NCBI GenBank assembly: GCA_011392765.1
Contig: WYCW01000002.1
Location: forward strand, 94,917 to 158,916
Direction of reading: 5' to 3'
DNA: 64,000 bases
Origin: Candidatus Thiosymbion ectosymbiont of Catanema sp. Cochon2018
Lineage (GTDB): Bacteria; Pseudomonadota; Gammaproteobacteria; Chromatiales; Chromatiaceae
The translations under genes and the position numbers were made by a program. Below the pieces are notes generated by a model. That model was not told where the DNA came from and searched no databases. It was given only the letters and a program-made list of their open reading frames with translations. This document shows positions 5,016 through 31,923 of the stretch, piece after piece (the first letter of the stretch is position 1; each line of letters starts with the position of its first letter).

Positions 5016-5281
5016 GGAGGAACTTAAATCTCGGGTCGCCGCGGCCTACCGGCGACCCTTCGACCTGGAACAGGGCCCGTTGCTGCGCGTCGGTCTGTTC
5101 ACCCGCGGGCCGCAAGACCATGTCCTCATGATCGCGATGCATCACATCGTCACCGATGGCAGGTCCCGGTGGACGTTGCTGTCGGAGTTATTGACGCTCT
5201 ATGCCGATAGAAAGGGGGGCCAAAAGGCCGGGGACCAAAAGACCGATCGGGCGACGCCATTGCCCCCCTTGCAGTGGCAAC

Positions 5282-7258
5282 ATGGCGGATGCCACCCAGG
5301 ATTGGCTCTATGAGATCGAGTGGCAATCCCGACCACATCCGTCGACTTCCCCAATCCAATCGCCAGGTCATTGGTTGATCTTTGCTGACCAAGCTGGCAT
5401 GGGGGAGGAGCTGGCTGAAAGCCTGGAGGCATTAGGGAATACCTGCCTCCTGGTTTATGCGGATGTCGGGGCACCCCCTGCGGGTACCCGACTCGACGAA
5501 CAAGGTCGAACCGGGCACCCGCAAGGGATGCCCCACCAGCAATCGACAGCTGGGGGGAAAGACAACCTATGGTACGTCGATCCCGCCAAACCCACCGACT
5601 TCGAGCGCCTCTTCGCCGACGCTTTCCAGGCGGAAACGTCGCCGTTACGGGGCATCATTCACCTGTGGAGTCTGGATGCGCCCGATGCCCCCGAATTGAC
5701 AGCTGAGGCCCTGTCCGAGGCCCAGGTCCTCGGTTGCGGCAGTGTGCTCCATCTATTGCAGGGCGAGATCAGACAGAACCTATCCGCAAAACTATGGCTG
5801 GTGACCCGCAAGGCCGTGGGCATCGAACAAGACCAGGATTCCCTGGCTATCGCCCAGCCGCCTTTATGGGGATTAGGTAAGGTCATTGCCCAGGAACATC
5901 CGGAGCGCTGGGGCGGGCTGATCGATGGCCCGACGGTTGCCGATCTAGTGGCTGAAATTGCCTCCGAAGACAAGGAAGATCAGGTGGTTTATCGGGCTGG
6001 AAAACGGTATGTCGCCCGTTTGGTGAAGAGCAAAGTGGCTCTAGCGGATGGTGGCGTGCTATCACAGTCCCCATTACAACCGGACCACAGTTATCTGATT
6101 ACCGGTGGTCTGGGTGCCCTGGGACTTAAGATCGCCCATTGGATGGTCGATGAGGGAGCCCGGCAGCTGGTCCTGACAGGCCGACGCGGACCTTCCGCTG
6201 AAGCCCAAGCGGTTGTGCGGCAACTGGAGGAAATGGGCGCCGAGGTCCTGGTGGTCAGCACTGATATTTCCGATCGAGCCCAGGTGGCCCGTTTGTTGGC
6301 GGAGATGGATGAAAAGATGCCGCCGCTCAAGGGCATTATCCACGCCGCCGGGATCCTGGATGATGGCGTGCTGGCGCAGCAGGATAGGGCGCGTTTCGAG
6401 CAGGTGATGGCCCCCAAGATAGTCGGTAGCTGGATTCTCCACACCCTGACGCAGGATCGGCCACTGGACTTCTTCGTGTGTTTTTCCTCGCTGGCGTCCT
6501 TGATCGGCTCGCCCGGTCAGAGCAATTACGCCGCCGCCAATGCCTTCATGGATGCCCTGGCCCATCACCGGCACGTCCTAGGACTGCCGGCCTTGAGCAT
6601 CAACTGGGGGGCCTGGGCGAAGATCGGGCTCGCCGCCAAGATGGACAGACAACAGCGAGACCGTTTGTTGGCGATGGGCATCGATAGTATCGACCCGAAA
6701 CAGGGAATCGCCATCTTAAGCGAATTGATGGGGAAACCTAAGGCCGTTCAGGTGGGCGTCTCTCCCATGGACTGGCCGCGCTTCCTGAAACAATTTTCGG
6801 TGGTGCCGGCCTTTTTGTCCGAGCTGTCTCGATCTCTCCCGGCTCGACCCTCGATGCCTGCCGATTTTATCGGGGAACTGAAAAAGCTACCGCCTGAAAG
6901 GCAAAAAGATTATGTGACCGCGCATATTCGATCCGAGCTCAATCGGATATTGGGTTTCGATCCCTCACAACCACTGGATTCCCAAACAGGATTTTCCGAT
7001 CTCGGGATGGATTCATTGATGACAGTGGAATTCAAGGCGCGTTTGGAAGCCAGGCTCGAACATAGATTATCCATAGAGTCTATGTTCAACTATTCCACGC
7101 TGGATTCGTTGGTAAACCATGTCGCCACTGAAGTATTGGCTCTGGAGCCGCCGAAAGAATCTGTTGCCGGTTTCAGGCAGGCGGAAGATGAATCCCAACA
7201 AAAGACTTTGAACAAATTCAACCACTATGGACTGAAAGTCCATAGAATGGCGGGCTAA
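5282..7258 (+). CDS. Polyketide ketoreductase-ACP protein (KR-ACP)
   Basis: From this ATG (658 residues) the protein begins with the LYEIEW linker that normally precedes the structural half of a PKS ketoreductase. Another in-frame ATG at 5201 would add 27 residues of non-domain sequence. The catalytic half has the NADPH motif TGGLGALG (residues 274-281), LDD at 359-361 (the signature of B-type KRs, which give a D-configured hydroxyl) and the catalytic region SSLASL..Tyr416-AAAN. A C-terminal ACP carries its serine in GMDSL (codon 7013) and closely resembles the ACP of the HMGS fusion. There is no KS or AT. The upstream junction is a condensation-domain pseudogene in another frame, so this is probably the surviving tail of a larger megasynthase. 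Its last 12 residues run into a hairpin array. Confidence 0.85.
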   Translation: MADATQDWLYEIEWQSRPHPSTSPIQSPGHWLIFADQAGMGEELAESLEALGNTCLLVYADVGAPPAGTRLDEQGRTGHPQGMPHQQSTAGGKDNLWYVDPAKPTDFERLFADAFQAETSPLRGIIHLWSLDAPDAPELTAEALSEAQVLGCGSVLHLLQGEIRQNLSAKLWLVTRKAVGIEQDQDSLAIAQPPLWGLGKVIAQEHPERWGGLIDGPTVADLVAEIASEDKEDQVVYRAGKRYVARLVKSKVALADGGVLSQSPLQPDHSYLITGGLGALGLKIAHWMVDEGARQLVLTGRRGPSAEAQAVVRQLEEMGAEVLVVSTDISDRAQVARLLAEMDEKMPPLKGIIHAAGILDDGVLAQQDRARFEQVMAPKIVGSWILHTLTQDRPLDFFVCFSSLASLIGSPGQSNYAAANAFMDALAHHRHVLGLPALSINWGAWAKIGLAAKMDRQQRDRLLAMGIDSIDPKQGIAILSELMGKPKAVQVGVSPMDWPRFLKQFSVVPAFLSELSRSLPARPSMPADFIGELKKLPPERQKDYVTAHIRSELNRILGFDPSQPLDSQTGFSDLGMDSLMTVEFKARLEARLEHRLSIESMFNYSTLDSLVNHVATEVLALEPPKESVAGFRQAEDESQQKTLNKFNHYGLKVHRMAG

Positions 7259-9498: not shown

Positions 9499-12400
9499 AT
9501 GAGTAATAACAACCCTACCCAACCAACCACCCTGGTCGACCTGCTCCGCTATCGGGCACAAACGCAACCTGACAAGACAGCCGATACCCTCACCGATCCC
9601 ATCGCCATCATCGGCATCGGTTGTCGCTTTCCCAAGGCCAGGAATCCCGACGAATTCTGGCAGCTCCTGAGAAATGGGGTGGATGCCGTCAGCCGGGTCC
9701 CCACATCGCGTTGGCCGCCCAAGGATAACAGCGTTCCCTGGGGCGGTTTTATCGATGACATGGACCGGTTCGACCCGGGCTTTTTCGGCATCTCTCCCCG
9801 CGAGGCTCAAACCATGGATCCTCAGCAACGCCTCCTGCTGGAGGTCGGCTGGGAGGCCCTGGAAAACGCCGGTATTGCCGTCCCATCCCTGGCCGGTAGT
9901 CGAACCGGGGTATTCGTTGGTATCTGGCAACGTGATTACCGCTATTACCTGCCTTCCGTAGGGGCGAATCTTTATTTCGAGACCGGCAACTCCTTCAGTA
10001 TTGCCGCCAATCGTCTATCTTATCTGTGGGATCTGCATGGCCCCAGCAGGGCCGTGGACACGGCTTTTTCCTCTTCCCTGGTGGCCTTACACGACGCCTG
10101 TCAGAGCCTGCGCTCGGGAGAATGCGATCTGGCCCTCGCCGGCGGCGTCAATCTGATGCTGCATCCCGGCGTGACGGATCGGTTTTCCGCCTCCCGTATG
10201 CTATCCCCCGAGGGGCGTTGCAAGGTCTTCGGTGCCGGGGCCGACGGTTATGTGCGGGGAGAGGGGTGCGGCATAGTCGTAATCAGGCACCTGAAGGATG
10301 CACTTGAAGGCGGTGACCGCATTCTGGCCGTTATTCCGGGTTCCGCCGTCAATCAGGATGGCCGCACGAATGGATTGGCCGCTCCCAATGGTAGGGCCCA
10401 ACAGGCGGTTATCCGCCAGGCCCTGGCCAATGCCGGGGTGGCGGCCTCGGAAATCAGCTATGTCGAGGCCCATGGCACAGGTATGCCGCTCGGCGATCGC
10501 ACCGAATTCGATGCCCTGAAAGAGGTGCTTCTGACACCGGATCGTTCGCCTGGGCAGATCTGTCATATCGGTTCGGTCAAGACCAATATCGGGCACCTGG
10601 AGTCCGCGGCAGGGATCGCCGGGGTGATCAAGACGGTACTGGCCCTGCAACACCGGGAGATCCCCCCCCATCTGAATATCGAAGCGCCCGATCCGGTGCT
10701 GGACATAGGGGCCGGGCCTCTCACGATTCCCATGGAATTGACCCCGTGGTCGAATGATTTTGCCCCCCCAAATTATCTGTTGGCGGGGGTAAGTTCCTTC
10801 GGTTTCAGCGGTTTCGGCGGCACCAATGCCCACGTCGTTCTGGCAGAGGCCCCTCCCGTAGAGGTATCTCCCGGAGAAGGATACGGTGAGCCGTCAGGCG
10901 AACCGCACCGATCGAGGCCTGTTCCCAGTGAGGCCGAACGCCCCTTCCACTTATTGACGCTGTCGGCCAAGACCGACGAGGCGCTGGGTGAGTTGGCAGA
11001 GAACTACGGCACCTACCTGAAGGCCCATCCGGAAATCCCACTGGCCGATGTCTGTTTCACGGCCAATACGGGACGGTCCCATTTCGATCATCGCCTGGCC
11101 CTCGTTGCCGGTTCCTCGGCAGAGGCACGGGAACAGTTGCACGCAGCCGGTTACAGCGTCGGGACCGCCGCTCGGGAAAGGCCCAGGATTGCCTTCCTGT
11201 TCTCCGGGCAGGGTTCCCAGTACGTGAGAATGGGGCGGCAACTCTACGAAACAGAACCGCTCTTTCGTCGGACCCTCGATGAATGCGACGCCATCCTGCG
11301 TCCTCTGGATGTCCCCTTGCTCGATCTCCTCTATCCCGAGACCGGAAAGCCGGATACCGGGTTGCTGGATCAAACCGCCTATACGCAACCGGCCCTGTTC
11401 GCTCTGGAATATGCCCTGGCCGGACTGTGGCAATCCTGGGGGGTTACCCCCGATGCCGTCATGGGGCATAGTTTCGGGGAATATGCGGCCGCCTGTATTG
11501 CCGGGGTTTTCGGTCCGGAGGATGGTCTGAAACTGATCGCGACGCGGGGCCGCCTGATGCAGACCCGGTGCGAGACGGGTGACATGCTGGCCCTGCCGGT
11601 GGGAGAAACCGAGGCCCGCGAACTCATCGCGCCCTTCGCGGAAGAGATCTCGGTTGCCGCTATCAACGGTCCTTCGAGTGTGGTCGTCTCCGGTACTCAC
11701 CGCGCCATGGAGGAATTGGCGGCTACCCTTGCCGACAGCGACGTAAAGGCCAAATCGTTATCCGTTTCCCATGCCTTCCATTCCGCCATGATGGAACCCA
11801 TGCTGGCCGAGTTTGAACAGGTGGCAAGCGCGATAACCTATGCCAAACCCACAATTCTCCTGTGTTCCAATGTCACAGGGAAAATAGCGACCGAGGAAAT
11901 CACAACGCCGGCTTACTGGGTCCGTCATGTACGCCAGCCGGCACGCTTTGCGGAAAGTATCCGGACCCTGTACGACCAGGGCCTGGAGACTTTTCTGGAG
12001 ATCGGCCCGAAACCGATCCTGCTGGGCATGGCCGGCCAGTGCCTGCCCGATGAAGTGGGGAATGGGCTCCCGAGTCTGCGTGAGGGACAAGACGACTGGT
12101 GGCAGATGCTGCAAAGCCTGGGAGAGTGGTACGCGCTCGGGGGCGCTGTCGATTGGGTGGCTTTCGATAAGGACTTCACACGCCGCAAGGTGCAACTGCC
12201 CACCTATCCCTTCCGGCGGCAGCGGTATTGGGTGGATGGAGCTGCGGGCAGGGATCCCGAGACAGCCGGATTGCCGACAAGTTCCTTGTCCGATCCGGTG
12301 GAACAGGGAAATATCGAAAGGCTGATCCAGCGGTTGAAGCAGACGGAACAGTTATCGGAAGAGCAGCTCGAACAGCTGCCGGCCTTGTTGGAGATACTGG

Positions 12401-12912
12401 CTGAACAGCACCAAAAAGAAGCCATAGCGGATACCACTTTGTCCGAACCGATCCAAGACCCGTTACCTGCTCGCAAATCGATTCCGATCAGACAGCGGTT
12501 GGAACAGGCCTCCGAGGAAGAATACGAGGGCATTTTAATCGGGTTTATCCGGGATAGGCTTGCCAATGTCCTGCGCATAAATCCCTCCCGATTGGATGTG
12601 CAGCAACCGCTGAATACTCTGGGGCTCGATTCCCTGATGGTGGTCGAGCTGAGAAATCGGATTCGATCGGAATCGGATGTGGACATCCCCATGGTAAGGT
12701 TCATGGAAGGGACCAGTGTTCTCGATTTGGCCAGGCAAGTCGGAACCCAAATCAAGATGCAATCCGGGGAGATTCGTTCCACCATATCGCTATTGCCGAC
12801 CACCGGCACGGCTGCGCTCAGCCCGGAGGAACAAACGCTTGCCAAACTGAAATCCGGGCAGTTGAGCGACCAGGAGATCGATGCCCTTCTGAATGAACAC
12901 GTCCGGCCGTGA
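9499..12912 (+). CDS. Type I polyketide synthase, KS(Cys-to-Phe)-AT-ACP
   Basis: This 1137-residue protein has a ketosynthase at ~33-450, an acyltransferase at ~565-870 and an ACP at ~1010-1080. The KS has all usual motifs, but the active-site cysteine of DTACSSS is Phe190 (codon TTT, 10066-10068). The two KS histidines (H325 in EAHGTG, H366 in NIGHLE) are kept. The AT has GHSFGEY (Ser658) and HAFH (758-761), the malonyl-CoA signature. The ACP serine is S1045 in GLDSL. A KS without cysteine but with both histidines cannot condense; it may decarboxylate malonyl-ACP to acetyl-ACP, as in KSQ-type loading modules. The C-terminal [12 protein letters not shown] may be a docking segment. It is therefore a likely starter module for the downstream NRPS, or an acetyl-ACP donor for the HMGS. 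Confidence 0.92.
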
Positions 12913-14767: not shown

Positions 14768-17700
14768 ATGAATGATGCCCCTGAAACAAAGGATCTCTCC
14801 GGCGAAGAAAAGCGCGCACTTCTGGAACGCTTGTTGCTCGAGAAAGCGAGCCGGGTAAAAACCTCGCATCCCTTATCCCATGGTCAGCAAGCCCTCTGGT
14901 TCCTGCACCAGGACGCCCCCGAGAGTCCGGCTTATAACGTGGCGGTGGTCTTTCGTATTCTCTCCCCGGTCGATGTATCGGCCTTGCGGTCGGTATTTCA
15001 GACTTTACTCAGTCGCCACCCCTCCCTGCGCAGCACCTTTTCGCAACCGGATGGCCAACCTGCTCAGATCGTCCAGGGCCACCAGGATGTCTATTTCGAG
15101 GAGATCGATGCCTCCATGGATACCGGGGAGGAACTCCAGCGACGGGTAACCGAGGCCTACCAGCGCCCTTTCGATCTGGAACAAGGCCCATTACTGCGAG
15201 TCAGTCTGTTCACGCGCGCGCCGGAAGAGCATGTGCTATTGATCGTGATGCATCATATCGTGACCGATGGTTGGTCCGATTGGGCGTTGCTGTCGGAGTT
15301 GTTGCTGCTCTATCCGGCCCTAAAGGCCGGCCAGTCGGCGACCTTGCCTCCCCTGACATACCACTACCGGGATTTCGTGAAGTGGCAGGCCGAACTGCTC
15401 GCAAGCCCCGAAGGGGAACGGCTGTGGAAATACTGGCGGGAACGGTTATCCGGTGAACTGCCGGTGCTCGATCTACCCACGGACCGCCCTCGTCCGCCCG
15501 TGCAGACCCATGAGGGCGCATCCGTTTTCTTCACACTACCGGAACCCCTGACCCGGAAACTCAGGGACCAGGCGCAAGCCTCGGGTGCCACCCTCTACAT
15601 GATCCTCCTGGCCGCCTTTCAGATATTGCTACATCGCTATACGGGCCAGGACGATATCCTGGTGGGCGCCCCCGCCGCGGGCCGTAGCCGCAGTGAATTC
15701 GAGGGCATCGTCGGTTATTTCGTCAATCCCATCGTCCTGCGGGCCAGGCTGGAAGGAAATCCGTCTTTCGCTGTCTTTCTCGACCAGGTGCGCCAAACCC
15801 TGCTGGAAGGACTCGCCCATCAGGATTACCCCTTCCCGCTGCTGGTCGAACGCCTGCAACCGACTCGGGATACCAGCCATTCTCCCATTTTCCAGGTCAT
15901 GTTCGCTTTGCGGAAAGCCCAGCAGGATGATGACCTATCCGCCTTGCTGGGGGCAGGCGACGAAAGCTTCAGCGTAAATAAAAATGGACTTCTATTGGCG
16001 CCTTTCAGGATGGCCCAACAGGAAGGCCAGTTCGATTTGGCCCTGGGAATGACTGAAACGAAACAATCCTTGTCCGGTGCCTTCCAATACAACACGGATC
16101 TGTTCGAGGCCGAGACGACCGAACGGATGGCGGGGCATTTCGTGCGGCTGTTGGAAGGGATTGTCGCCGCGCCCGAGGCGGAAATATCCCGGCTGCCGCT
16201 GCTGACCGAGGTAGAACAGGCACGCATCCTGGTCGAGTGGAACGACACGAAAGCTCCCTATCCGGCCGACAAATGCATCCATGAGCTCTTCGAGGAACAG
16301 GTGGCGAAAAGCCCGGATGCGGTGGCGGTGGTCTTCGAAGATGAGGAGGTCAGTTACGGGGAACTCAACGCCCGCGCCAACCGGCTGGCACACCGGCTGC
16401 GGGCGCTGGGGGTAGGACCGGAAACCCTGGTCGGGCTCCTGGTGGAACGGTCGGTAGAGATGATTGTGGGCCTGCTGGCGATCCTCAAGGCCGGCGGGGC
16501 CTATGTACCCCTGGACCCGGCGTATCCGCAAGAACGGCTTGCCTTTATGGCCGAGGATGCGGAGCTGAAGCTATTGCTGTGCCATGGATCGACCCGGGAA
16601 GGGTTGCCGGAATGCCCGGCACGGATCCTCGACCTGGATGCGGAAGCGGCGGCAATCGCCGGTGAAAGCTCGGCTAACCCTGTACGACTTGCCGGGCCGG
16701 ATAACCTCGCCTATGTCATCTATACGTCCGGTTCGACCGGGAAACCGAAAGGAGTGATGACCCAACATCGTGGTTGTGTAAACTATATTATTCCAGTTAT
16801 TGCCATATACGAGTTGGGTGATAATGATACTGTTCTCCAATTCTCTTCTATAACCTTCGATTCATCGGTAGACGAGATTTTTACGTGTCTTTCCTCCGGA
16901 GGAAGACTGATTCCAAGGACGGAAAAAATGATCGAGTCACCACAACGCTTCCTGGAAACCTGCCGGGACTCGGGTGTAACCGTATTGTATCTTCCAACCT
17001 CATATTGGCATCAGATCATATCCGAAATAGCAGGCATCATGAATGAGTCCTTTGTTGTCAAAAAGAAAGGTAGAGTTGGTGATGGTTTATTTTCCACACG
17101 GCCGTATAAAAAAGGAGAAATGGTACTGAAGTTGGAAGGTGAGATTCTCGACCACCCTACAAGAGAGACCGTGCAACTCGGTAAAAATAAACATATCAGG
17201 GATAAATCGAATGGAGTCTTTATGAATCATTCATGTTATCCCAATACGACCATAAAACATGATTGCGTCATAGCGATCAGAGACATCCGGTTCGGTGACG
17301 AAATAACCTTTGATTATTGTGAAACGGAAGACAAGCTGAGCAATCCTTTTATTTGCGATTGCTGCAATAATCTGATCGCAGGAAAATTCAGTGCAAAAGA
17401 AAGAACGCCTGATCCTGAATTATCCGACGCGAAGACGCACAATTTCATCTTCTCCAGAAGATTGCGTCTCGTTATTATCGGAGGGGAAAATGCGCTACCG
17501 GATAGATTAAAGATCTGGAACACGCTGAGTGGTTACTCGAAATTAGTGAACGGCTATGGACCCACGGAAGCAAGCATTGCCGTCACGTTCTGGGCGTTCG
17601 ATGGTACTGAATACATTAAGGAGGAAATAAATGAAGTCCCGATCGGTCGTCCTATCGCCAACATGCGAACATATATTCTCGACCAGCACCGGCAGCCTGT

Positions 17701-20700
17701 TCCCATTGGAGTCCCCGGTGAGCTTCATATCGCAGGCATAGGGCTCGCACGTGGTTATCTCAATCAGCCTGAACTGACTGCCGAAAAATTCATTGACGTT
17801 GAATTACTCGGTAAAACGGAGCGTGTCTACAAAACCGGTGACCTTTGCCGCTGGCTGCCCGACGGGAATATCGAGTTCCTGGGCCGGATCGATACGCAGG
17901 TAAAAATCAGGGGCTTCCGCATCGAGTGCGGGGAGGTGGAAAATGCCCTGTCGGCACACCCCGGCATCCGCGAGGCGGTGGTGGATGCCCGTGGTGAGGG
18001 CGTGGACCGGCAATTGGTGGCGTGGGTGGTCGCGGAGAGCGACAACCAACCGGCGCTGCGGGATGAATTACGCGCGCACCTGCGTGGCCTGCTGCCCGAC
18101 TGGATGGTGCCCGCCGGATTCGTGTTCCTGAAGGCATTACCCCTGACGCCGAGCGGCAAGATCGACCGGCGGGCATTGCCGGACCCGGATGCCGACGCGC
18201 TGGGAACGGAAGCGCACTATGCTGCACCCCGAGATCCGGTGGAAGAGACCCTGTGCGGGATCTTCGCCCAGGTGCTCGGGGTCTCACGGGTGGGCATCCA
18301 GGACGGCTTCTTCGCACTCGGCGGCCATTCCTTGTTGGCGACCCGCGTGGTGTCCCAAGTGCGAGAGCATCTCGCGGTGGAATTGCCCTTGCGCACCCTG
18401 TTCGAGTATCCGACCCCGGCCGGGTTGGCGAGGGCCATCGCCGAACTCTCCGGCTCCGAGACCTTGCCGCCGGTGGTTGCTATCCCACGCGATGGTCCCC
18501 TTGCAGCCTCGTTCGCCCAGGAGCGGTTGTGGGTGCTGGATCGCCTCGAAGGCAGTGAGAATGTCACCTACTCCATCCCGTTTGCAGTGCGTTTGCGGGG
18601 GGCGTTGGAGGTATCCGCGCTCAGCCGGGCGCTCTCCCAGCTCGCGGCCCGGCATGAATCCTTGCGCACGCACTTCGCGGCGGGTGCGGAGGGCCCCCCG
18701 ACTCAGGTGATTCTGCCGGCGGGACCAAGCCCCCTGCCCAGCGAAGCGGTCACGGAAGCGGCCTTGGTCGTCCGTCTGCGTGAAGAGGCCGCCCGTCCCT
18801 TCGATCTGGCAACGGGCCCCCTGTTTCGGGCGCTGCTGTTCCGTACCGACGAGCTGGGACACGTCTTGTTCCTGAATGTCCACCACATCGTCTTCGACGG
18901 TTGGTCGGGGGACATCCTGCAGCGAGAACTGGGAGAACTCTACAACGCGGAAATCGAAGGCCGCCCCCCCGTCCTCCCCGCGGCATCCCTGCACTACGCG
19001 GATTACGCGGCCTGGCAACGGGGCTGGCTGGCGGGTGAGACCCAAGCGCGTCAGCTCGACTGGTGGCGGGAACACCTCGCGGGCGCGCCGGCCTTGTTGG
19101 AGCTGCCCTGGGATCATCCGCGTCCGCCGCTCCAGGATTTCCGGGGTGGTCAGGTGCCGGTAGTCATCCCCTCGCACCTGGGAACGCGGCTCGCCGAGCT
19201 GGGTCGTGGGCAGGGAGCGACCCTGTTCATGGTTCTGCACGCGGCTTTCTGCGTCCTGCTCGCTCGCCTGTCGGGGCAGGAAGACATCGTAGTCGGTACG
19301 CCGGTTGCCGGACGCCGGCACGCCAGCTTCGACCACATGATCGGGTTCTTCGTGAACACCCTGGCCCTGCGGGCGGATCTCGCCGGAGACCCCGGCTTCG
19401 GGGAAGTGCTATCACAGGTTCGGGAGCGTGCGTTGGCGGCCTGGTCGCACCAGGACGTACCCTTCGAGCGGGTGGTGGATGCCCTGCGCCCGGAACGCTC
19501 CCTGGATCGGACACCGCTGTTTCAGGTGCTGTTCGTGCTGCAGAACACCCCGGTGGAGGACATGACCTTTGTCGATCTGGATGTGGAAGCACTGGCGATT
19601 GGTGAGGAAGATGGGCGTGGCATTGCCAAGTTCGATCTGTTGCTCGGCCTCGAAGAGACAGCTGCTGGTGAAATAAAAGGTTCCCTGGGATACGCCTCGC
19701 AGCTGTTCAAGCGCTCCACGATCGAGCGTTGGGCGGGGCATTTCGTGCGGCTGTTGGAAGGGATCGTCGCCGCCCCCGAGGCGGAAATATCCCGGCTGCC
19801 GCTGCTGACCGAGGTAGAACAGGCACGCATCCTGGTCGAGTGGAACGACACAAAAACGCCCTATCCGCAAGACACGTGTATCCATGCGCTCTTCGAGGAA
19901 CAGGTGGCGAGGAGCCCGGATGCGATGGCGGTGGTCTTCGAAGATGAGGAGGTCAGTTACGGGGAACTCAACGCCCGCGCCAACCGGCTGGCACACCGGC
20001 TGCGGGCGTTGGGAGTAGGACCGGAAACCCTGGTCGGGCTCCTGATGGAACGGTCGGTGGAAATGATCCTGGGCCTGCTGGCGATCCTCAAGGCCGGCGG
20101 GGCCTATGTGCCCCTGGACCCGGCGTATCCGCAGGAACGGCTGGCCTTCATGACCGAGGATGCGGATCTGAAGGTGCTGCTGTGTCATGGGGCGACACGG
20201 GAAAGCTTACCGGGGTGCTCGGCGCGGATTCTCGACCTGGATGCGGATGCGGCGGCAATCGCCGGTGAAAGCTCGGCCAATCCCGCACGGCTTGGTTCAC
20301 CGGATAATCTTGCCTATGTCATCTATACCTCGGGGAGCACGGGGAAACCAAAAGGTGTGGCTATGTCCCATGCCGGGTTGGTCAACCTTCTTGCATGGCA
20401 GAGGGCACAGTTCCGTGGTGAAGAAGAACATGTCGTTTTGCAATTTGCTCCCTTGAGTTTCGATGTCTCTTTTCAGGATATTCTGTCCACATTGTACGAA
20501 GGCAGTACGTTGGTACTGGTTGGAAACGACGTGCGCAGGGATTTCACTCTCCTGATCGACCATCTGATTGCAAACGAAGTGGATCGCATCTTTCTGCCAT
20601 TCATTGCCCTGCAAAACTTTGCCTCCATTTCGAACAGCACGGGAAAAATTCCGGATCTGAAGGAGGTAATCACCGCCGGAGAGCAATTGCAGAATACGGA

Positions 20701-23700
20701 TGAGATACAAACATTCTTTGGCAGACTGCCCGGTTGTATCCTTTACAACCAGTATGGACCCACGGAGACGCATGTTGTCAGCAGCTATGCCCTGAAAGGG
20801 GACGTTTCCGAGTGGCCGGAATTACCCCCCATCGGCTCTCCTATTGCCAATATCCGACTTTATATTTTCGATGTTCAAAAGCATCCTGTTCCCATCGGTG
20901 TTCCGGGAGAGCTCTACATCGGTGGCGTGGGCGTAGCCCGTGGCTATCTCAACCGTCCCGATCTCACTGCCGAGCGATTCATTCCCGATCCCTTCAGCCA
21001 AGACCCCGATGCCCGTCTGTACCGCACCGGCGATCTGTGCCGCTGGCTACCCGACGGGAACATCGAGTTCCTGGGTCGGATCGATACGCAGGTAAAAATC
21101 AGGGGCTTCCGCATCGAGTGCGGCGAGGTGGAAAATACCCTGCTGGCACACCCCGGCATCCGCGAGGCGGTGGTGGATGCCCGTGGCGAGGGCGTGGATC
21201 GGCAACTGGTGGCGTGGGTGGTCGCGGAGAGCGACGACCAACCGGCGCTGCGGGATGCCTTGCGCGCCCACCTGCGCGGCACCTTGCCCGACTGGATGGT
21301 GCCCGCCGGATTCGTGTTCCTGGAGGCATTACCCCTGACGCCGAGCGGCAAGATCGACCGACGGGCATTGCCGGACCCGGATGTCGATGCGTTAGGAATG
21401 GAGACCCAATACACTGCGCCCCGGGATCCGGTGGAAGAGACCCTGTGCGGGATCTTCGCCCAGGTGCTCGGGGTCTCGCGAGTGGGCATCCATGACGGCT
21501 TCTTCGCGCTCGGCGGCCATTCCTTGTTGGCGACCCGCGTGGTATCCCAGGTGCGAGAGCATCTCGCGGTGGAATTGCCCTTGCGCACCCTGTTCGAACA
21601 CCCGACCCCGGCCGGGTTGGCGAGGGCCATCGCCGAACTCTCCGGCTCCGAGACCTTGCCGCCGGTGGTTGCTATCCCGCGTGACGCACCCCTCGCCGCC
21701 TCGTTCGCCCAGGAACGGTTGTGGGTGCTGGATCGCCTCGAAGATAGTGAGAATGCCACCTACTCTATCCCGTTTGCGGTGCGTTTGCGGGGGGCGTTGG
21801 AGGTATCCGCGCTCGCTCGGGCGATCTCCCAATTCGTGGCCCGGCATGAATCCTTGCGCACGCTCTTGGCGGAGGGTACGGAGGGCTCCCCGACTCAGGT
21901 GATTCTGCCGGCGGGACCAATCCCCCTGCCCAGCGAAGCGGTCACGGAAGCGGCCTTGGTCGACCGTCTGCGTGAAGAGGCCGCCCGTCCCTTCGATCTG
22001 GCAACGGGCCCCCTGTTTCGGGCGCTGCTGTTCCATACCGACGAGTTGGGACACGTCTTGTTCCTGAATGTCCACCACATCGTCTTCGACGGTTGGTCGG
22101 GGGACATCCTGCTGCGGGAGCTGGGAGAACTCTACAACGCGGAAATCGAAGGCCGCCCCCCCGTCCTCCCGGCTGCATCCCTGCACTATGCGGATTACGC
22201 GGCCTGGCAACGGGGCTGGCTGACGGGTGACGTCCTGGCGCGTCAGCTCGATTGGTGGCGGGAACACCTCGTGGGCGCGCCGGCCTTGTTGGAGCTGCCC
22301 TGGGACCGGCCGCGTCCACCGCTCCAGGATTTCCGGGGTGGTCAGGTGCCGGTGATCATCCCCCCACACTTGGGAACGCGGCTCGCCGAGCTGGGCCGTC
22401 GGCACGGAGCGACCCTGTTCATGGTTCTGCACACGGCCTTCTGCGCCCTGCTCGCTCGCCTGTCGGGGCAGGAAACGATCGTGGTCGGTACGCCGGTTGC
22501 CGGACGCCGGCACGCCAGCTTCGATCACATGATCGGGCTCTTCGTGAACACCCTGGCCCTGCGGGCGGATCTCGCCGGAGACCCCGGCTTCGAGGAATTG
22601 CTCTTGCAGGTGCGGGAGCGCGCATTGGCGGCCTGGTCGCACCAGGACGTGCCCTTCGAGCGGGTGGTGGATGCCTTGCGCCCGGAACGCTCCCTGGATC
22701 GGACACCATTGTTTCAGGCGATGTTCGCGCTGCAGAACACCTCGGTCGAGGATATGACCTTTGCCGATCTGGATGTGGAAGCACTGGCGGTCGGCGAGGA
22801 AGCCGGGCTCGACATTGCCAAGTTCGATCTGTCACTGGGCCTCGAAGAGACGCCCGGTGGCGGCATGACAGGTGCCCTGGAATATGCCTCCCAGCTGTTC
22901 GAACGCCCCACCATCGCCCGTTGGGCGGGGCATTTCGTGCGGCTGTTGGAAGGAATTGTCGCCGCGCCGGAGGCAAAAATTTCCCGGTTGCCGCTGCTGA
23001 CAGAGGCGGAGCAGGAGCGGATGCTGGTGGAATGGAATGCAACGGCGACACCCTATCCGCAAGACAAGTGTGTCCATGCGCTCTTCGAGGAACAGGTGGC
23101 GAGGAGCCCGGATGCGATGGCGGTGGTCTTCGAAGATGAGGAGGTCAGTTACGGGGAACTCAACGCCCGCGCCAACCGGCTGGCACACCGGCTGCGGGCG
23201 TTGGGAGTAGGACCGGAAACCCTGGTCGGGCTCCTGATGGAACGGTCGGTGGAAATGATCCTGGGCCTGCTGGCGATCCTCAAGGCCGGCGGGGCCTATG
23301 TGCCCCTGGACCCGGCGTATCCGCAGGAACGGCTGGCCTTCATGACCGAGGATGCGGATCTGAAGGTGCTGCTGTGTCATGGGGCGACACGGGAAAGCTT
23401 ACCGGGGTGCTCGGCGCGGATTCTCGACCTGGATGCGGATGCGGCGGCAATCGCCGGTGAAAGCTCGGCCAATCCCGCACGGCTTGGTTCACCGGATAAT
23501 CTTGCCTATGTCCTCTATACCTCGGGGAGTACCGGAAAACCGAAGGGGGTGATGGTCGAGCACAAGAGCTTGACCAACCTTGCCCACATGCAAACGCAGG
23601 CCTTCGGTATCACACCGAAGGACAGGGTGCTGCAATTCGCATCGCTCAACTTCGACGCCTCGCTGGAGCAGATATTCAGTGCCTTCCTGGGTGGGGCAAG

Positions 23701-25642
23701 GTTGGTTTTGCGAGGGCAGCAGCTATGGACGGCGGAGGAATGCTACCGCCATGTGTGTCGGGACCGGGTCACGGTTGCGGAATTTCCGCCTGCTTACCTC
23801 CATCAATTCCTGGAATTTTGCCTGGAGGATGAAAACGTATCTTCCACGCTCCCGCTCAAACAACTCGTCACCGGGGGAGAGGCACTCTCCAATGCGACTG
23901 TCGCCTTATCTCGCAGCCTGGGGTTATCCCTCTTCAATACCTACGGTCCCACGGAAGCGACAATAACAGCCACCAACGCCTATTTATCCGACGATGAAAA
24001 GATCACCGACCCGATAGCTCCCATTGGCCGCCCGATAGCAAATGTCCGGGTATATGTCCTTGACCGCCGGATGCAGCCTGTTCCCATCGGCATTGGTGGT
24101 GAATTGTGTATCGGCGGCGCAGGCGTAGCCCGTGGCTATCTGAATCGCCCTGATCTGACTGCCGAGCGATTCATTCCCGATCCCTTCAGCGAAGACCCCG
24201 ATGCCCGCTTGTACCGCACCGGCGATCGGTGCCGCTGGCTGCCCGACGGGAATATCGAATTCCTGGGCCGGGTCGATACGCAGGTGAAAATCAGGGGCTT
24301 CCGCATCGAGTGCGGCGAGGTGGAAAATGCCCTGTCGGCACACCCCGGCATCCGGGAGGCGGTGGTGGATGCCCATGGCGAGGGCGTGGACAAGCAATTG
24401 GTGGCGTGGGTGGTCGCGGCGAGCGATGACCAACCGGCGCTGCGGGATGAGTTGCGCACACACCTGCGCGGTCTGCTGCCCGACTGGATGGTGCCCTCGT
24501 TATTCGTATTCCCGGAGGTGCTGCCCCTGACGCCGAGCGGCAAGATCGACCGGCGGGTACTGCCGGACCCGGATCCGTTTCAAAGAGAGGCAAAACAAAC
24601 ATTCATCGCACCACGCACGTCGATTGAAAAGGTGCTGGTAGATATCTGGGCCGATGTGCTGGAGCACAAAAACATCGGCATTCACGATAGCTTCTTTGAG
24701 TTGGGCGGCCATTCGCTGTCGGCGACGAGGGTGGTATCCCAGGTGCGGACACGTCTCGGGGTGGAGCTACCGCTACGGGCCCTGTTCGAGCATCCTACTC
24801 CCGCGGGTCTGGCGAGTGCGGTGCGCGGGAATAAAGAATGGAAGCCGACCATCCTCTTTCCACTCAATGCCGGCAATAAGAGGTCCAAACCACCGCTCTT
24901 TTGTGTCCATCCGGTTGGAGGTGGCGCCCTCTGTTATCGGGATCTGGCCAATTGTCTGGAGAGTGACCAACCGGTTTACGGCATTCAGGCCGTCGGCTTC
25001 GAGGGAGAAGTAGAGCCATTGACAGCTATCGACGCCATGGTCACTCGTTATGTCGAGGAAATAACGACGCTCTGGCCACAAGGACCTTACAACCTGTACG
25101 GCTGGTCATACGGCGGTCTGATTGCCTTCGAAATGGCCCATCGTCTGCGGTCGGATGATCGGGAAGTCGCGCTGCTGGCGTTAGGGGATAGCCCGAGTCC
25201 GTTGGAGTTCGAGCAGCATCCGCAAGAACCGGAAGAAGATGAAATACTGCTCCATATCCTGATGGAGACAAGCGACGAAAAGCTTCCTCTGTTCGGTGAA
25301 CTGCAAGACTTGACGTCAGCGGAGCGTATGGGCTACCTGAGGGAACGGGTGATGGGTAGTGAATTCGGGGATCTCGACCGCTTTACTCGCATCTACCGAG
25401 CCAACCTACGCGCATTCCCTGCCGGCTATCGGCCTGTTCCCTGGGAAGGCAAGATCCTGTCCCTCACCGCGGCGGAAGAGGAACCGGTCGCCACACCTGA
25501 AACCCGTACCGACGCCATATGGGAGGATTTTGCCCGGCAGATCGACCACCATGCGGTTCCCGGCGATCATTTCACGATGCACAGACAACCGAACGTTCGC
25601 AGGATTGCCGAAATCCTGGGGAAGTACTTGGAAATATCATAA
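14768..25642 (+). CDS. Three-module NRPS with SET domain inside A1 (C-A[SET]-T-C-A-T-C-A-T-TE)
   Basis: The protein is 3624 residues. C1 has HHIVTDG at 162-168, C2 at 1372 and C3 at 2436 (HHIVFDG). A domains lie at ~490-1110, 1690-2190 and 2750-3250, each with TSGSTGKPKG and YGPTE. T-domain serines are S1188, S2252 and S3316 (GGHSL). The thioesterase has Ser3447 in GWSYGG and His3601. There is no epimerase, so L-residues are expected. In A1 a SET domain (~758-874) separates motif A4 (FDSSVDEIF, 697-705) from A5 (NGYGPTE, 928-934). Outer parts of the A domains are nearly identical while the cores differ, so specificity cores have been exchanged. My hand-read specificity codes are DSDSIGGIAK (A1, lysine-like), DVQIIAQVVK (A2, proline-like) and DAEAVGTITK (A3, unassigned). 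C1 resembles hybrid PKS-accepting domains, fitting delivery of a starter by the KS-AT-ACP protein. The product would be an acylated tripeptide; no known product is assigned. Confidence 0.95.
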   Translation: MNDAPETKDLSGEEKRALLERLLLEKASRVKTSHPLSHGQQALWFLHQDAPESPAYNVAVVFRILSPVDVSALRSVFQTLLSRHPSLRSTFSQPDGQPAQIVQGHQDVYFEEIDASMDTGEELQRRVTEAYQRPFDLEQGPLLRVSLFTRAPEEHVLLIVMHHIVTDGWSDWALLSELLLLYPALKAGQSATLPPLTYHYRDFVKWQAELLASPEGERLWKYWRERLSGELPVLDLPTDRPRPPVQTHEGASVFFTLPEPLTRKLRDQAQASGATLYMILLAAFQILLHRYTGQDDILVGAPAAGRSRSEFEGIVGYFVNPIVLRARLEGNPSFAVFLDQVRQTLLEGLAHQDYPFPLLVERLQPTRDTSHSPIFQVMFALRKAQQDDDLSALLGAGDESFSVNKNGLLLAPFRMAQQEGQFDLALGMTETKQSLSGAFQYNTDLFEAETTERMAGHFVRLLEGIVAAPEAEISRLPLLTEVEQARILVEWNDTKAPYPADKCIHELFEEQVAKSPDAVAVVFEDEEVSYGELNARANRLAHRLRALGVGPETLVGLLVERSVEMIVGLLAILKAGGAYVPLDPAYPQERLAFMAEDAELKLLLCHGSTREGLPECPARILDLDAEAAAIAGESSANPVRLAGPDNLAYVIYTSGSTGKPKGVMTQHRGCVNYIIPVIAIYELGDNDTVLQFSSITFDSSVDEIFTCLSSGGRLIPRTEKMIESPQRFLETCRDSGVTVLYLPTSYWHQIISEIAGIMNESFVVKKKGRVGDGLFSTRPYKKGEMVLKLEGEILDHPTRETVQLGKNKHIRDKSNGVFMNHSCYPNTTIKHDCVIAIRDIRFGDEITFDYCETEDKLSNPFICDCCNNLIAGKFSAKERTPDPELSDAKTHNFIFSRRLRLVIIGGENALPDRLKIWNTLSGYSKLVNGYGPTEASIAVTFWAFDGTEYIKEEINEVPIGRPIANMRTYILDQHRQPVPIGVPGELHIAGIGLARGYLNQPELTAEKFIDVELLGKTERVYKTGDLCRWLPDGNIEFLGRIDTQVKIRGFRIECGEVENALSAHPGIREAVVDARGEGVDRQLVAWVVAESDNQPALRDELRAHLRGLLPDWMVPAGFVFLKALPLTPSGKIDRRALPDPDADALGTEAHYAAPRDPVEETLCGIFAQVLGVSRVGIQDGFFALGGHSLLATRVVSQVREHLAVELPLRTLFEYPTPAGLARAIAELSGSETLPPVVAIPRDGPLAASFAQERLWVLDRLEGSENVTYSIPFAVRLRGALEVSALSRALSQLAARHESLRTHFAAGAEGPPTQVILPAGPSPLPSEAVTEAALVVRLREEAARPFDLATGPLFRALLFRTDELGHVLFLNVHHIVFDGWSGDILQRELGELYNAEIEGRPPVLPAASLHYADYAAWQRGWLAGETQARQLDWWREHLAGAPALLELPWDHPRPPLQDFRGGQVPVVIPSHLGTRLAELGRGQGATLFMVLHAAFCVLLARLSGQEDIVVGTPVAGRRHASFDHMIGFFVNTLALRADLAGDPGFGEVLSQVRERALAAWSHQDVPFERVVDALRPERSLDRTPLFQVLFVLQNTPVEDMTFVDLDVEALAIGEEDGRGIAKFDLLLGLEETAAGEIKGSLGYASQLFKRSTIERWAGHFVRLLEGIVAAPEAEISRLPLLTEVEQARILVEWNDTKTPYPQDTCIHALFEEQVARSPDAMAVVFEDEEVSYGELNARANRLAHRLRALGVGPETLVGLLMERSVEMILGLLAILKAGGAYVPLDPAYPQERLAFMTEDADLKVLLCHGATRESLPGCSARILDLDADAAAIAGESSANPARLGSPDNLAYVIYTSGSTGKPKGVAMSHAGLVNLLAWQRAQFRGEEEHVVLQFAPLSFDVSFQDILSTLYEGSTLVLVGNDVRRDFTLLIDHLIANEVDRIFLPFIALQNFASISNSTGKIPDLKEVITAGEQLQNTDEIQTFFGRLPGCILYNQYGPTETHVVSSYALKGDVSEWPELPPIGSPIANIRLYIFDVQKHPVPIGVPGELYIGGVGVARGYLNRPDLTAERFIPDPFSQDPDARLYRTGDLCRWLPDGNIEFLGRIDTQVKIRGFRIECGEVENTLLAHPGIREAVVDARGEGVDRQLVAWVVAESDDQPALRDALRAHLRGTLPDWMVPAGFVFLEALPLTPSGKIDRRALPDPDVDALGMETQYTAPRDPVEETLCGIFAQVLGVSRVGIHDGFFALGGHSLLATRVVSQVREHLAVELPLRTLFEHPTPAGLARAIAELSGSETLPPVVAIPRDAPLAASFAQERLWVLDRLEDSENATYSIPFAVRLRGALEVSALARAISQFVARHESLRTLLAEGTEGSPTQVILPAGPIPLPSEAVTEAALVDRLREEAARPFDLATGPLFRALLFHTDELGHVLFLNVHHIVFDGWSGDILLRELGELYNAEIEGRPPVLPAASLHYADYAAWQRGWLTGDVLARQLDWWREHLVGAPALLELPWDRPRPPLQDFRGGQVPVIIPPHLGTRLAELGRRHGATLFMVLHTAFCALLARLSGQETIVVGTPVAGRRHASFDHMIGLFVNTLALRADLAGDPGFEELLLQVRERALAAWSHQDVPFERVVDALRPERSLDRTPLFQAMFALQNTSVEDMTFADLDVEALAVGEEAGLDIAKFDLSLGLEETPGGGMTGALEYASQLFERPTIARWAGHFVRLLEGIVAAPEAKISRLPLLTEAEQERMLVEWNATATPYPQDKCVHALFEEQVARSPDAMAVVFEDEEVSYGELNARANRLAHRLRALGVGPETLVGLLMERSVEMILGLLAILKAGGAYVPLDPAYPQERLAFMTEDADLKVLLCHGATRESLPGCSARILDLDADAAAIAGESSANPARLGSPDNLAYVLYTSGSTGKPKGVMVEHKSLTNLAHMQTQAFGITPKDRVLQFASLNFDASLEQIFSAFLGGARLVLRGQQLWTAEECYRHVCRDRVTVAEFPPAYLHQFLEFCLEDENVSSTLPLKQLVTGGEALSNATVALSRSLGLSLFNTYGPTEATITATNAYLSDDEKITDPIAPIGRPIANVRVYVLDRRMQPVPIGIGGELCIGGAGVARGYLNRPDLTAERFIPDPFSEDPDARLYRTGDRCRWLPDGNIEFLGRVDTQVKIRGFRIECGEVENALSAHPGIREAVVDAHGEGVDKQLVAWVVAASDDQPALRDELRTHLRGLLPDWMVPSLFVFPEVLPLTPSGKIDRRVLPDPDPFQREAKQTFIAPRTSIEKVLVDIWADVLEHKNIGIHDSFFELGGHSLSATRVVSQVRTRLGVELPLRALFEHPTPAGLASAVRGNKEWKPTILFPLNAGNKRSKPPLFCVHPVGGGALCYRDLANCLESDQPVYGIQAVGFEGEVEPLTAIDAMVTRYVEEITTLWPQGPYNLYGWSYGGLIAFEMAHRLRSDDREVALLALGDSPSPLEFEQHPQEPEEDEILLHILMETSDEKLPLFGELQDLTSAERMGYLRERVMGSEFGDLDRFTRIYRANLRAFPAGYRPVPWEGKILSLTAAEEEPVATPETRTDAIWEDFARQIDHHAVPGDHFTMHRQPNVRRIAEILGKYLEIS
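17039..17389 (+). other. SET domain embedded in the first adenylation domain
   Basis: Residues 758-874 of the NRPS read as a small stand-alone SET methyltransferase, beginning with its own methionine (MNESFVVKKKGRVGDGLF). It contains the SAM-binding GRVGDGLFS, the diagnostic NHSCYPN (820-826), GDEITFDY (843-850) and a post-SET-like CDCC (863-866). The frame is continuous on both sides. Immediately before it is LPTSYWHQI and soon after it RLRLVIIGGE, which are adjacent in an ordinary A domain. Base composition drops here (23 of 60 G/C at 17041-17100, against 42 of 60 at 18001-18060). SET domains methylate lysine side chains; the substrate here is inference. Confidence 0.9.
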
Positions 25643-26034: not shown

Positions 26035-26204
26035 AAAAGCAAAGCGAACACAGGTTCTCATCAATAGCCCCGGAGGGACTTTTGCGACATCCTCCATGGG
26101 AACGGGGCGGACTTTGGTGATTGTAGGGAATGCCCTCGGTGGCGTTCCGAAAAGCCCTCCGTAGCGTTGTGCCTTCGCAATTCCTGGTAAGAGAGGACAA
26201 CCAC

Positions 26205-31627: not shown

Positions 31628-31923
31628 TCGCGCCTCCTCGTGATGCCATCCTGAACGACCAACCGCGCTCACCGCATCCTACGCCGGCTCATCCTACGCC
31701 AGCTCACCACATCCTACACTCCCGGCAAGACCGTAATATAACGAGGGGGGTGAAGGCTGCGAACGGTTCGGCAGCGAGAAACAAGATGACTCCGCGGCCA
31801 AGGCAAAGCAGGGCGTGCAGTTTAAACAATGTCCACCGAACAAGTAAGTACTGTACAAAGGACTCTTTTTCCCGGACAGGCAGCCGGGCGAATAATCGAC
31901 CACATTGCGCAGAGACCGAAACC

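What the first reader, a model, noticed from the sequence alone, without database searches (positions are those of the whole stretch)
17039..17389. A SET methyltransferase domain is embedded inside an NRPS adenylation domain
In one unbroken frame, motif A4 (FDSSVDEIF) and LPTSYWHQI are followed by ~115 residues with all SET hallmarks (GRVGDGLF, NHSCYPN, GDEITFDY, CDCC). Then RLRLVIIGGE and NGYGPTE (A5) resume. Interrupted A domains are established for Rossmann-type methyltransferases, ketoreductases and monooxygenases, mostly at A2/A3 or A8/A9. I recall an A4/A5 precedent only for monooxygenases. I know of no NRPS with a SET domain. The insert even starts with its own Met, as if a free small SET gene had been swallowed whole.
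Basis: partly seen in the sequence, partly recalled or inferred. Interest (0 to 1): 0.93.

Follow-up and report, generated by a model that had tools for sequence, protein, structure and literature searches.

The report
SET methyltransferase inside peptide-synthetase adenylation domain
A bacterial peptide-building enzyme carries a small SET methyltransferase, a type best known for marking histone lysines, inside the domain that picks an amino acid; there it would likely methylate the side chain of that amino acid, predicted to be lysine-like, and the same arrangement occurs in a second bacterial phylum.

Summary
One unbroken 3624-aa NRPS frame (14768-25642; C-A-T-C-A-T-C-A-T-TE) holds a SET domain (PF00856, 46.6 bits, cut-off 22.4) between motifs A4 and A5 of its first A domain. 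It is not an assembly error: an NRPS of the Nitrospirota bacterium Ca. Magnetocorallium paracelense has the same insert at the same place (57% identical). In the window, SET and A core (about 16760-17840) form one low-GC block between near-identical module flanks, so it came by A-core swapping. Free relatives of the SET lie directly upstream of a Pls/PosA-like (poly-lysine/ornithine-type) synthetase in 9 of 72 loci; 68 other loci, with 1.5-kb flanks, have no such neighbour. All 11 SET-linked A domains have an acid at the code position that holds the side-chain amine in PosA and Pls. Best explanation: an interrupted A domain that selects a basic amino acid and methylates its side-chain amine (inferred, untested). 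Main rival: S-methylation of Met, as in BurB, the closest solved SET; the tree does not settle which is nearer. The library searches made show no SET domain in an NRPS. Upstream polyketide genes look partly decayed, so the pathway may not run here.

The parts
14768..25642 (+). NRPS gene, 3624 aa, C-A(SET)-T-C-A-T-C-A-T-TE
14861..16231 (+). Condensation domain 1 (HHIVTDG intact)
   Evidence: Pfam aa 32-488; motif
16268..16759 (+). A1 domain, N-terminal flank up to motif A3 (YTSGSTGKPKG); DNA mostly 81-97% identical to A2 and A3 of the same gene
16760..17839 (+). A1 core (A3 to A7) with the SET insert: low-GC block; where alignable 44-56% DNA identity to the A2/A3 cores, 62-71% from about 17630; GC3 0.41-0.52 against 0.71-0.82 in the flanks
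16859..16873 (+). A4 specificity residues D235, S236, D239 (acidic code position 3)
17036..17428 (+). SET methyltransferase insert (aa 757-887)
   Evidence: PF00856, 46.6 bits; BurB E 6.1e-10
17225..17236 (+). NHSC motif of SET
   Evidence: sequence
17315..17317 (+). SET tyrosine of FDY, the column of BurB Tyr124
   Evidence: numbering from PMC12542666
17354..17365 (+). post-SET cysteines (CDCC)
   Evidence: sequence
17459..17839 (+). A1 core resumes: RLRLVIIGGE, A5 (NGYGPTE), up to A7
17840..18196 (+). A1 C-terminal subdomain (A7-A10); 86-96% DNA identity to A2, and 85-96% to A3 up to about 18.1 kb
18200..18480 (+). T domain 1 (GGHSL, aa 1185)
   Evidence: borders approximate
19871..21388 (+). 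A2 domain, code DVQFIAQVV-K, Pro-like
23063..24574 (+). A3 domain, code DAEEVGTIT-K, basic-residue-like
24890..25621 (+). Thioesterase domain
   Evidence: Pfam; GWSYG
9499..12912 (+). PKS module KS-AT-ACP upstream, probably the partner of C1
99..2093 (+). HMG-CoA-synthase-like plus ACP (3' part of a longer ORF that begins upstream of the window)
5201..7258 (+). KR-ACP, a PKS piece without KS or AT

Best explanation
The first adenylation domain of this NRPS is an interrupted adenylation domain whose A4-A5 loop holds a SET-fold (class V) methyltransferase, and it likely methylates, with SAM, the side-chain amine of the basic, predicted lysine-like amino acid that the same domain selects. Shown: one frame, SET with its catalytic motifs, intact A motifs, same architecture in a second phylum, core and SET acquired as one block here. 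Inferred: the A domain loads a basic amino acid onto T1; SET, tethered beside it, transfers methyl to the omega-nitrogen, most likely on the T1-bound aminoacyl thioester (as reported for M domains in interrupted A domains, PMC11355689, passage); C2 then joins it to proline (A2 code) and a second basic residue (A3 code), and TE releases the acyl peptide. The building block would be N-epsilon-methyl-lysine or a close analogue.
For: SET and A domain in one frame with intact motifs. Same insert at the same site in L028; the two A cores are 54% (first half) and 61% (second half) identical, while eleven other A domains give 21.5-32.6% and 36.0-57.8% against the window core. Model with A fold intact: mean pLDDT 83, pTM 0.76, top match ApnA A1; 4d4h TM by target 0.95. 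Free relatives of the insert (33-39% identical) stand directly upstream of Pls/PosA-like synthetases in 9 of 72 loci, with a 4-nt ATGA overlap in 6 of 9 (the in-frame ATG of L033 was checked by hand); in a separate draw 5 of the 6 Planctomycetota loci with E < 1e-45 have an A-domain gene next door. All 11 SET-linked A domains have D/E at code position 3; in PosA this Glu binds the omega-amine and its mutant had no activity, in Pls it is E217 (PMC10522769, PMC11253843, passages). Position 2 is Ser or Ala in all 11; the PosA authors report Ala for Lys, Met for Orn, Phe for DAP/DAB enzymes. L028 code DAEINGGVAK equals PosA DMEHNGTVSK at 6 of 10 and BacB-Lys at 5 of 8, but also the Arg/Har code at 6 of 10. 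SETs are typically lysine-side-chain N-methyltransferases (established knowledge).
Against: No activity is shown. The window's own code DSDYIGGIAK has Asp, not Glu, at position 3 and by simple identity is nearer to a Met code (DVWYLGGICK, 6 of 10) than to Lys (BacB 3 of 8) or PosA (3 of 10). The closest solved SET is BurB, which methylates the sulfur of free Met. The corrected tree leaves open whether the embedded SETs are nearer to the Pls-type or to the bur-like SETs. SET next to an A-domain gene is not general: 0 of 68 other fetched SET loci with 1.5-kb flanks, and 54 of 60 in the second draw lack it. The two embedded domains differ at code positions 2, 3, 4, 5 and 8. In poly-lysine-type enzymes the omega-amine is the bond-forming nucleophile, so its methylation there is not self-evident. 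The Pls-like neighbours fall under NCBI's curated cut-off (324-382 against 423 bits for the three tested). Upstream PKS genes look broken.
Confidence: 0.52

Rival explanations
1. The embedded SET works like BurB: it S-methylates methionine (free or loaded) to S-methyl-methionine, and the acidic pocket residue would hold the sulfonium cation.
For: BurB is the best match in the PDB (E 6.1e-10) and methylates free Met (PMC12542666, parts 1-2 of 4 read). Window code is 6 of 10 identical to Met code DVWYLGGICK and 5 of 10 to DVFYLGGVCK (codes from PMC12283262). A bur-like cluster in Eleftheria terrae holds a free SET 36% identical to the insert.
Against: L028 code shares only 4 and 5 of 10 with these two Met codes. 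In the tree the bur-like SET (L149) lies in a 12-row starred set (100/97) without the embedded pair; deeper forks are unresolved. BurB residues R70, H72, R133 and H138 are T, E, N and D in the insert (alignment, read by hand). PosA/Pls-type pairing of other relatives points to diamino acids.
Confidence: 0.18
2. The insert is a tolerated passenger: the SET no longer methylates, or the whole assembly line is decaying, and no methylated product is made.
For: An IS66 transposase (3537-5003) lies in the cluster, a KR-ACP piece lacks KS/AT, and the KS upstream of the window looks truncated by a frame break. Three same-genus genomes searched have no match to this SET.
Against: The NRPS frame is open over 10.9 kb with all checked catalytic motifs intact; SET keeps NHSC, the FDY tyrosine and the post-SET cysteines in both embedded copies at 54% overall identity; two phyla keep it.
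Confidence: 0.14
3. The SET methylates a protein lysine, for example on the T domain, the NRPS itself or another cell protein, and regulates the machine.
For: Most characterised SET domains act on proteins (established knowledge); NHSC and DY are as in protein lysine methyltransferases (alignments).
Against: No extra substrate-binding domain in the insert; recurring partnership of relatives with amino-acid-activating enzymes (A domain, Pls/PosA-like genes, ATP-grasp ligase fusions) points to a building block.
Confidence: 0.08
4. The SET methylates another nucleophile of the selected residue: a guanidine or imidazole nitrogen, or the alpha-amine.
For: Arg/Har code DVESIGGVTK shares 5 of 10 with the window code, 6 with L028 and 7 with the Pls-type code; ApnA A1, the closest structure, takes Arg and Tyr; SETD3 methylates His (title in listing).
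Against: No SET acting on Arg or on an alpha-amine came up in these searches; position 2 Ser/Ala with acidic position 3 fits Lys equally well.
Confidence: 0.08

Closest known systems
Interrupted A domains with M domains (TioN, TioS, KtzH, MarQ)
   Same: A methyltransferase sits inside an A domain and acts on the residue that the domain loads.
   Different: Those sit at a2/a3 or a8/a9 (PMC11355689, passages) and are class I (Rossmann) folds (recalled); this is a class V SET fold at A4/A5.
Myxothiazol/melithiazol A domains with an FMO between a4 and a5
   Same: Same insertion site.
   Different: Oxygenase, not methyltransferase (PMC10204066, passage).
BurB, SET methionine S-methyltransferase
   Same: SET fold; acts on an amino acid in natural-product synthesis; closest solved structure.
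   Different: Free protein, tetramer, free Met as substrate; its bur-like relative sits in another set of the SET tree.
PosA / Pls cationic homopolymer synthetases
   Same: Related free SETs are paired with Pls/PosA-like genes; the A code has an acid at position 3.
   Different: The window NRPS is an ordinary multimodular one with TE; the neighbours score under the family cut-off.
A-core subdomain swaps in NRPS evolution
   Same: Breakpoints just after A3 and near A7 with flanks kept (PMC8097286, passages).
   Different: Here the swapped core carries an extra enzyme.

Membership tests
Interrupted NRPS adenylation domain | Auxiliary catalytic domain within one A domain, same frame | tested here: met
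Interrupted NRPS adenylation domain | A motifs intact on both sides of the insert | tested here: met
Interrupted NRPS adenylation domain | Insertion at a known site (A2/A3, A4/A5, A8/A9) | tested here: met
   A4/A5; sites from PMC8097286
Interrupted NRPS adenylation domain | Both activities in one polypeptide | not testable with these tools
   needs enzyme assay
SET (PF00856) methyltransferase | Score over the curated cut-off | tested here: met
   46.6 (insert alone) and 37.1 (whole protein) bits against 22.4
SET (PF00856) methyltransferase | GxG, NHSC, catalytic Tyr | tested here: met
   GDG, NHSC and FDY present, (which residues define the family is recalled)
SET (PF00856) methyltransferase | SAM-dependent methyl transfer | not testable with these tools
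   needs enzyme assay
BurB-type Met S-methyltransferase | Groups with the bur-cluster SET | tested here: not met
   tree: L149 in a 12-row set (100/97) that lacks the embedded pair; deeper forks unresolved; BurB itself was not in the tree
BurB-type Met S-methyltransferase | Host A domain selects Met | tested here: inconclusive
   6 and 5 of 10 for window, 4 and 5 of 10 for L028
Pls/PosA synthetase (for the free-SET neighbours) | TIGR02353 over its cut-off | tested here: not met
   324-382 bits against 423.1 for the three tested, near full length; 0 of 4 genomes over the cut-off, where 13 of 14 control genomes also gave some match at E <= 0.001 (1 over the cut-off)
Basic-amino-acid-activating A domain | Acidic residue at Stachelhaus position 239 | tested here: met
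   D in window, E in L028 and in 9 of 9 Pls-like

The most novel reading that the evidence does not exclude
SET enzymes have a second life as amino-acid-level methyltransferases of nonribosomal assembly: small bacterial SETs methylate the side-chain amine of lysine-type building blocks in partnership with amino-acid-activating enzymes, as a stand-alone partner of poly-lysine-type synthetases in Planctomycetota, Verrucomicrobiota and Armatimonadota, and, in two phyla, built right into the A domain as a new class of interrupted A domain.
Probability: 0.45. Interest if true: 0.92.

Novelty: new variant of a known kind. Interest (0 to 1): 0.86.

Why it matters
Interrupted A domains are the natural models for building two activities into one NRPS module, and the methylating kinds tabulated in the review seen here sit at a2/a3 or a8/a9 (PMC11355689, passages; their Rossmann fold is recalled). 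A 130-residue SET in the A4/A5 loop would add a much smaller methylating insert, a new site for methylation, and side-chain N-methylation of basic residues. It would also place a fold best known from histone lysine methylation in the making of peptide natural products, and the free SET plus Pls/PosA-like gene pair gives a simple two-gene system in which to test it, possibly leading to methylated poly-lysine-type polymers.

Tried and rejected
Assembly chimera: rejected, since a second genome has the same architecture.

More examples of the fusion: none found besides the window and L028. Protein database, two region searches with NRPS-length and module-length queries: only the window's own protein (469 candidates) and nothing (191 candidates); the plain insert gave two free SETs (4 candidates). 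Whole genomes, SET queries: 194 genomes; 369; 345; 339; 235; 246; 194; the draws overlap in part. The only SET matches in frames of NRPS length are the window's (3628 codons) and L028's (3731). Other long frames: 2141 codons turned out to be two overlapping genes; 1140 (L249), 825 (L250) and 783 (L251) hold no A domain; L193 (940) is an ATP-grasp-SET frame; L195 (814), L148 (557), L019 and L024 (523 each) had no A domain in the fetched stretch. The other frames over 500 codons and most unfetched matches were not looked into. Same-genus genomes: 3 of 3 listed without a match. Phages: no match. Plasmids: 10 records, none with an NRPS annotated under the match; three contexts were read.

SET beside an A-domain gene: 71 fetched loci were scanned; only the three that are the window or L028 themselves hit, so 0 of 68 others. 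In the second draw 6 of 60 hit, two of them the seed genomes.

First tree is void: loci from the genome search are not turned to the match strand, so several minus-strand rows were read in a wrong frame. It was rebuilt with an HMM-guided frame for every row (175 rows; of 203 loci with a SET I left out those under 45 bits and copies of the two embedded ones). The correction removed my earlier reading that the embedded SETs lie nearer to the Pls-type than to the bur-like SETs; I lowered the best explanation from 0.55 to 0.52, raised the BurB rival from 0.15 to 0.18 and lowered the novel case from 0.48 to 0.45 for that reason.

First code reading (Ser at position 278, in my first notebook entry) was wrong; corrected by motif logic (Pro code of A2) and by the 235-278 spacing of 42-43 (PosA 217 to 260 is 43). 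The code search was partly built on it.

First structure job was poor (pLDDT 64, pTM 0.31) for lack of A-domain rows; the second replaced it. Its SET part is only moderately confident, with low-confidence linkers, so no claim is made on the SET-to-A geometry. Neither Foldseek listing shows a SET among its 50 rows; the fold of the insert rests on sequence. Finding A domains by the search for related loci in viral contigs gave nothing; DNA patterns did.

SET-Pls pairing as many independent events: not claimed; on the tree it needs one change (73/87, not starred). In Verrucomicrobiota only the seed among 30 fetched loci has the pair; in Planctomycetota one of the six strongest loci (L189) lacks an A domain within 1.5 kb.
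Full report
WHAT IS THERE. The window lies in contig C9 of a 5.0-Mb, 16-contig genome. ORF 14768-25642 encodes a 3624-aa NRPS, C-A-T-C-A-T-C-A-T-TE, and a SET domain is matched at aa 771-850 inside the first A domain. The cut-out insert scores 46.6 bits against a cut-off of 22.4. GDG, NHSC and the FDY tyrosine are present, and A3, A5, A7, A8, A10, the T serines, C-domain HHxxxDG and TE GxSxG are intact. The insert lies between A4 (FDSSVDEIF ... LPTSYWHQI) and A5 (RLRLVIIGGE ... NGYGPTE).

NOT AN ARTEFACT. A scan of one genome for each of 84,980 species with an alignment of the insert and two free relatives gave 227 stretches, of which 72 encode a SET relative. One of the 72, L028 from Candidatus Magnetocorallium paracelense (Nitrospirota; a coral-reef magnetotactic bacterium, PMC10278575, listing and passages), carries the SET inside an NRPS A domain at the same site, in an open frame of 3731 codons that runs off the contig start. 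SET identity is 57% over residues 1-122 by tblastn, 54% over the aligned insert. The A core is 54% (first half) and 61% (second half) identical between the two genomes; the flanks are 51% and 53%. Eleven other A domains (two of the window, two of L028, six of viral contigs L157, L158, L160 and L161, one Pls-like, L037) give 21.5-32.6% for the first core half and 36.0-57.8% for the second against the window (a twelfth row failed). The first half above all marks the two as one kind of A core, so the fusion of this SET with this core is probably older than the split of the two lines.

HOW IT GOT HERE. Within the NRPS, A1 is mostly 81-97% identical in DNA to A2 and A3 up to motif A3 (about 16760; A2 and A3 98-100% to each other there), falls to 44-56% where it can be aligned, is 62-71% from about 17630, and 85-96% again from about 17810. 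GC3 is 0.713 in the N flank, 0.413 in the pre-SET core, 0.405 in SET, 0.518 in the post-SET core and 0.815 in the C flank; the cores of A2 and A3 have 0.578 and 0.667. The SET therefore came in with its A core by the A-core swapping described for NRPS evolution (PMC8097286, passages).

STRUCTURE. An AlphaFold2 model of the 643-residue A(SET) (48 rows; mean pLDDT 83, pTM 0.76) matches A-domain structures, best ApnA A1 (4d56, E 7.1e-58; 4d4h, core only, TM by target 0.95, rmsd 3.1). The A fold is thus predicted to be undisturbed. The SET part is predicted with moderate confidence and the linkers poorly; I draw no geometry from it. ApnA A1 takes Arg and Tyr (PMC11253843, passage).

WHAT THE SET IS KIN TO. 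In a 175-row tree with few columns (it replaces, see Tried and rejected) the two embedded SETs are sisters (100/95, starred) and fall with nine free SETs of Bacteroidota and metagenomes (L029, its genome copy L125, L030-L032, L039, L041, P0001, P0002; 97/79, not starred). The closest solved structure is BurB (E 6.1e-10), a SET that methylates free Met to S-methyl-Met (PMC12542666, two of four parts read). The bur-like SET of Eleftheria terrae (L149) falls in another set (100/97, starred, 12 rows). How the embedded set, the bur-like set and the Pls-type SETs relate is unresolved.

THE PARTNER CLUE. In 9 of the 72 loci (L033, L034, L035, L036, L037, L038, L040, L042, L049; records labelled Planctomycetota, Verrucomicrobiota and Armatimonadota) the free SET is directly upstream of and co-directional with an A-domain protein; eight have open frames of 1340-1404 codons, L034 is cut by the contig end. 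Three of them scanned against NCBIfam match the Pls/PosA-family terminal domain with E 1.5e-96 to 4.4e-114, near full length but below the curated cut-off; Pfam finds a T domain in three of four scanned (not in L036). The membrane nature of that domain is known for the family (PMC10522769) and was not tested here. In six of the nine the genes overlap by ATGA (and hand check for L033); in L042 and L038 the distance is 2 and 6 nt, in L035 the start is unclear. Of the other 62 loci (some with short flanks) only L056 shows a related gene, an acyl-CoA-ligase-like ORF 5.5 kb off. In a second draw (52 of 246 genomes with a match) five of the six Planctomycetota loci with E below 1e-45 have an A-domain gene beside the SET (L186 the seed, L187, L188, L190, L191; L189 not), while in Verrucomicrobiota only the seed of 30 fetched loci does. 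Elsewhere the pairing is absent: 0 of 68 other fetched SET loci with 1.5-kb flanks. SET and A domain are separate genes also where one frame looked fused (L246). Two further long frames join SET to a D-Ala-D-Ala-ligase-like ATP-grasp domain (L193, L250). So SETs recur beside amino-acid-activating enzymes in some branches, not in most.

WHAT THE A DOMAIN PICKS. Codes, read by motif and checked by spacing: window A1 DSDYIGGIA-K, L028 A3 DAEINGGVA-K, Pls-type DSECYGGVT (nine loci, six positions read in truncated L034). All 11 have an acid at position 3. In PosA this Glu221 holds the omega-amine and its mutant had no activity; position 2 is Ala in Lys, Met in Orn and Phe in DAP/DAB enzymes; Pls uses E217 (PMC10522769 and PMC11253843, passages). 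Ser/Ala at position 2 and D/E at position 3 point to a long basic side chain. Against this, the window code taken alone is nearest to a Met code (6 of 10), and D replaces E; Arg/Har codes fit about as well as Lys. A2 reads Pro-like (Val236, Gln239 as in PMC12283262, section 11) and A3 basic-like.

MECHANISM. Best reading: A1 loads a lysine-like residue on T1, and SET methylates its side-chain amine before condensation. In interrupted A domains with M domains, methylation follows loading on T and free substrate is not accepted (PMC11355689, passage); BurB by contrast works on the free amino acid. Timing and methyl number are open.

CONTEXT. Upstream lie PKS genes (KS-AT-ACP 9499-12912; KR-ACP 5201-7258; HMGS-type 99-2093), further up, by eye, ECH-like and FAAL-like pieces and a KS that looks truncated by a frame break, and an IS66 transposase at 3537-5003. 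Function of the whole line in this strain is doubtful; the NRPS frame itself is intact.

NOVELTY. Searches for SET with NRPS or interrupted A domains in the held library listed nothing relevant (0 papers, 16: 2, 33: 20 of 447 seen, 70: 20). PMC11355689, PMC11253843, PMC8949500 and PMC8097286 do not contain 'SET domain'. The library lacks most subscription papers and the census PMC8341866. I file it as a new variant of the interrupted A domain.

Noticed in passing
L033, L034, L035, L036, L037, L038, L040, L042, L049: Conserved two-gene unit: free SET directly upstream of a Pls/PosA-like synthetase, code DSECYGGVT; may make a methylated cationic polymer.
   Followed up: partly
   Followed up: partly
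L149 (Eleftheria terrae plasmid NZ_CP106953.1): A bur-like cluster: PKS, SET, TauD-type dioxygenase, aminotransferase, aldehyde dehydrogenase, reductase-ended synthetase, FkbH, decarboxylase.
   Followed up: partly
L029:6879-8318: Nearest free SET overlaps a PP-loop (QueC-like) gene, with another small ORF, GNAT-like by eye, just before it.
   Followed up: partly
contig C9, about 3.2 kb before the window start; window 3537-7258: The PKS part looks decayed: KS apparently truncated at a frame break (by eye), IS66 transposase, and a KR-ACP piece without KS/AT.
   Followed up: partly
window 12962-14734 and 27165-28955; 26130-27143; 7891-8481 and 31750-32523: The NRPS is flanked by two paralogous AAA-ATPase-like/PD-(D/E)XK genes, a PDDEXK_2 gene and two Uma2 genes. 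An ORF next to the L028 NRPS (L028:13151-14836) looks like the same AAA-ATPase-like kind by eye.
   Followed up: no
window 16268-16759, 19871-20353, 23063-23545: N-terminal A subdomains of the three modules are 81-100% identical in DNA over most of their length, pointing to recent module duplication or gene conversion.
   Followed up: partly
G000:C15:14917-15150: A second, free SET ORF (116 codons) in the same genome, 35% identical to the insert over residues 37-111; it groups elsewhere in the tree.
   Followed up: partly
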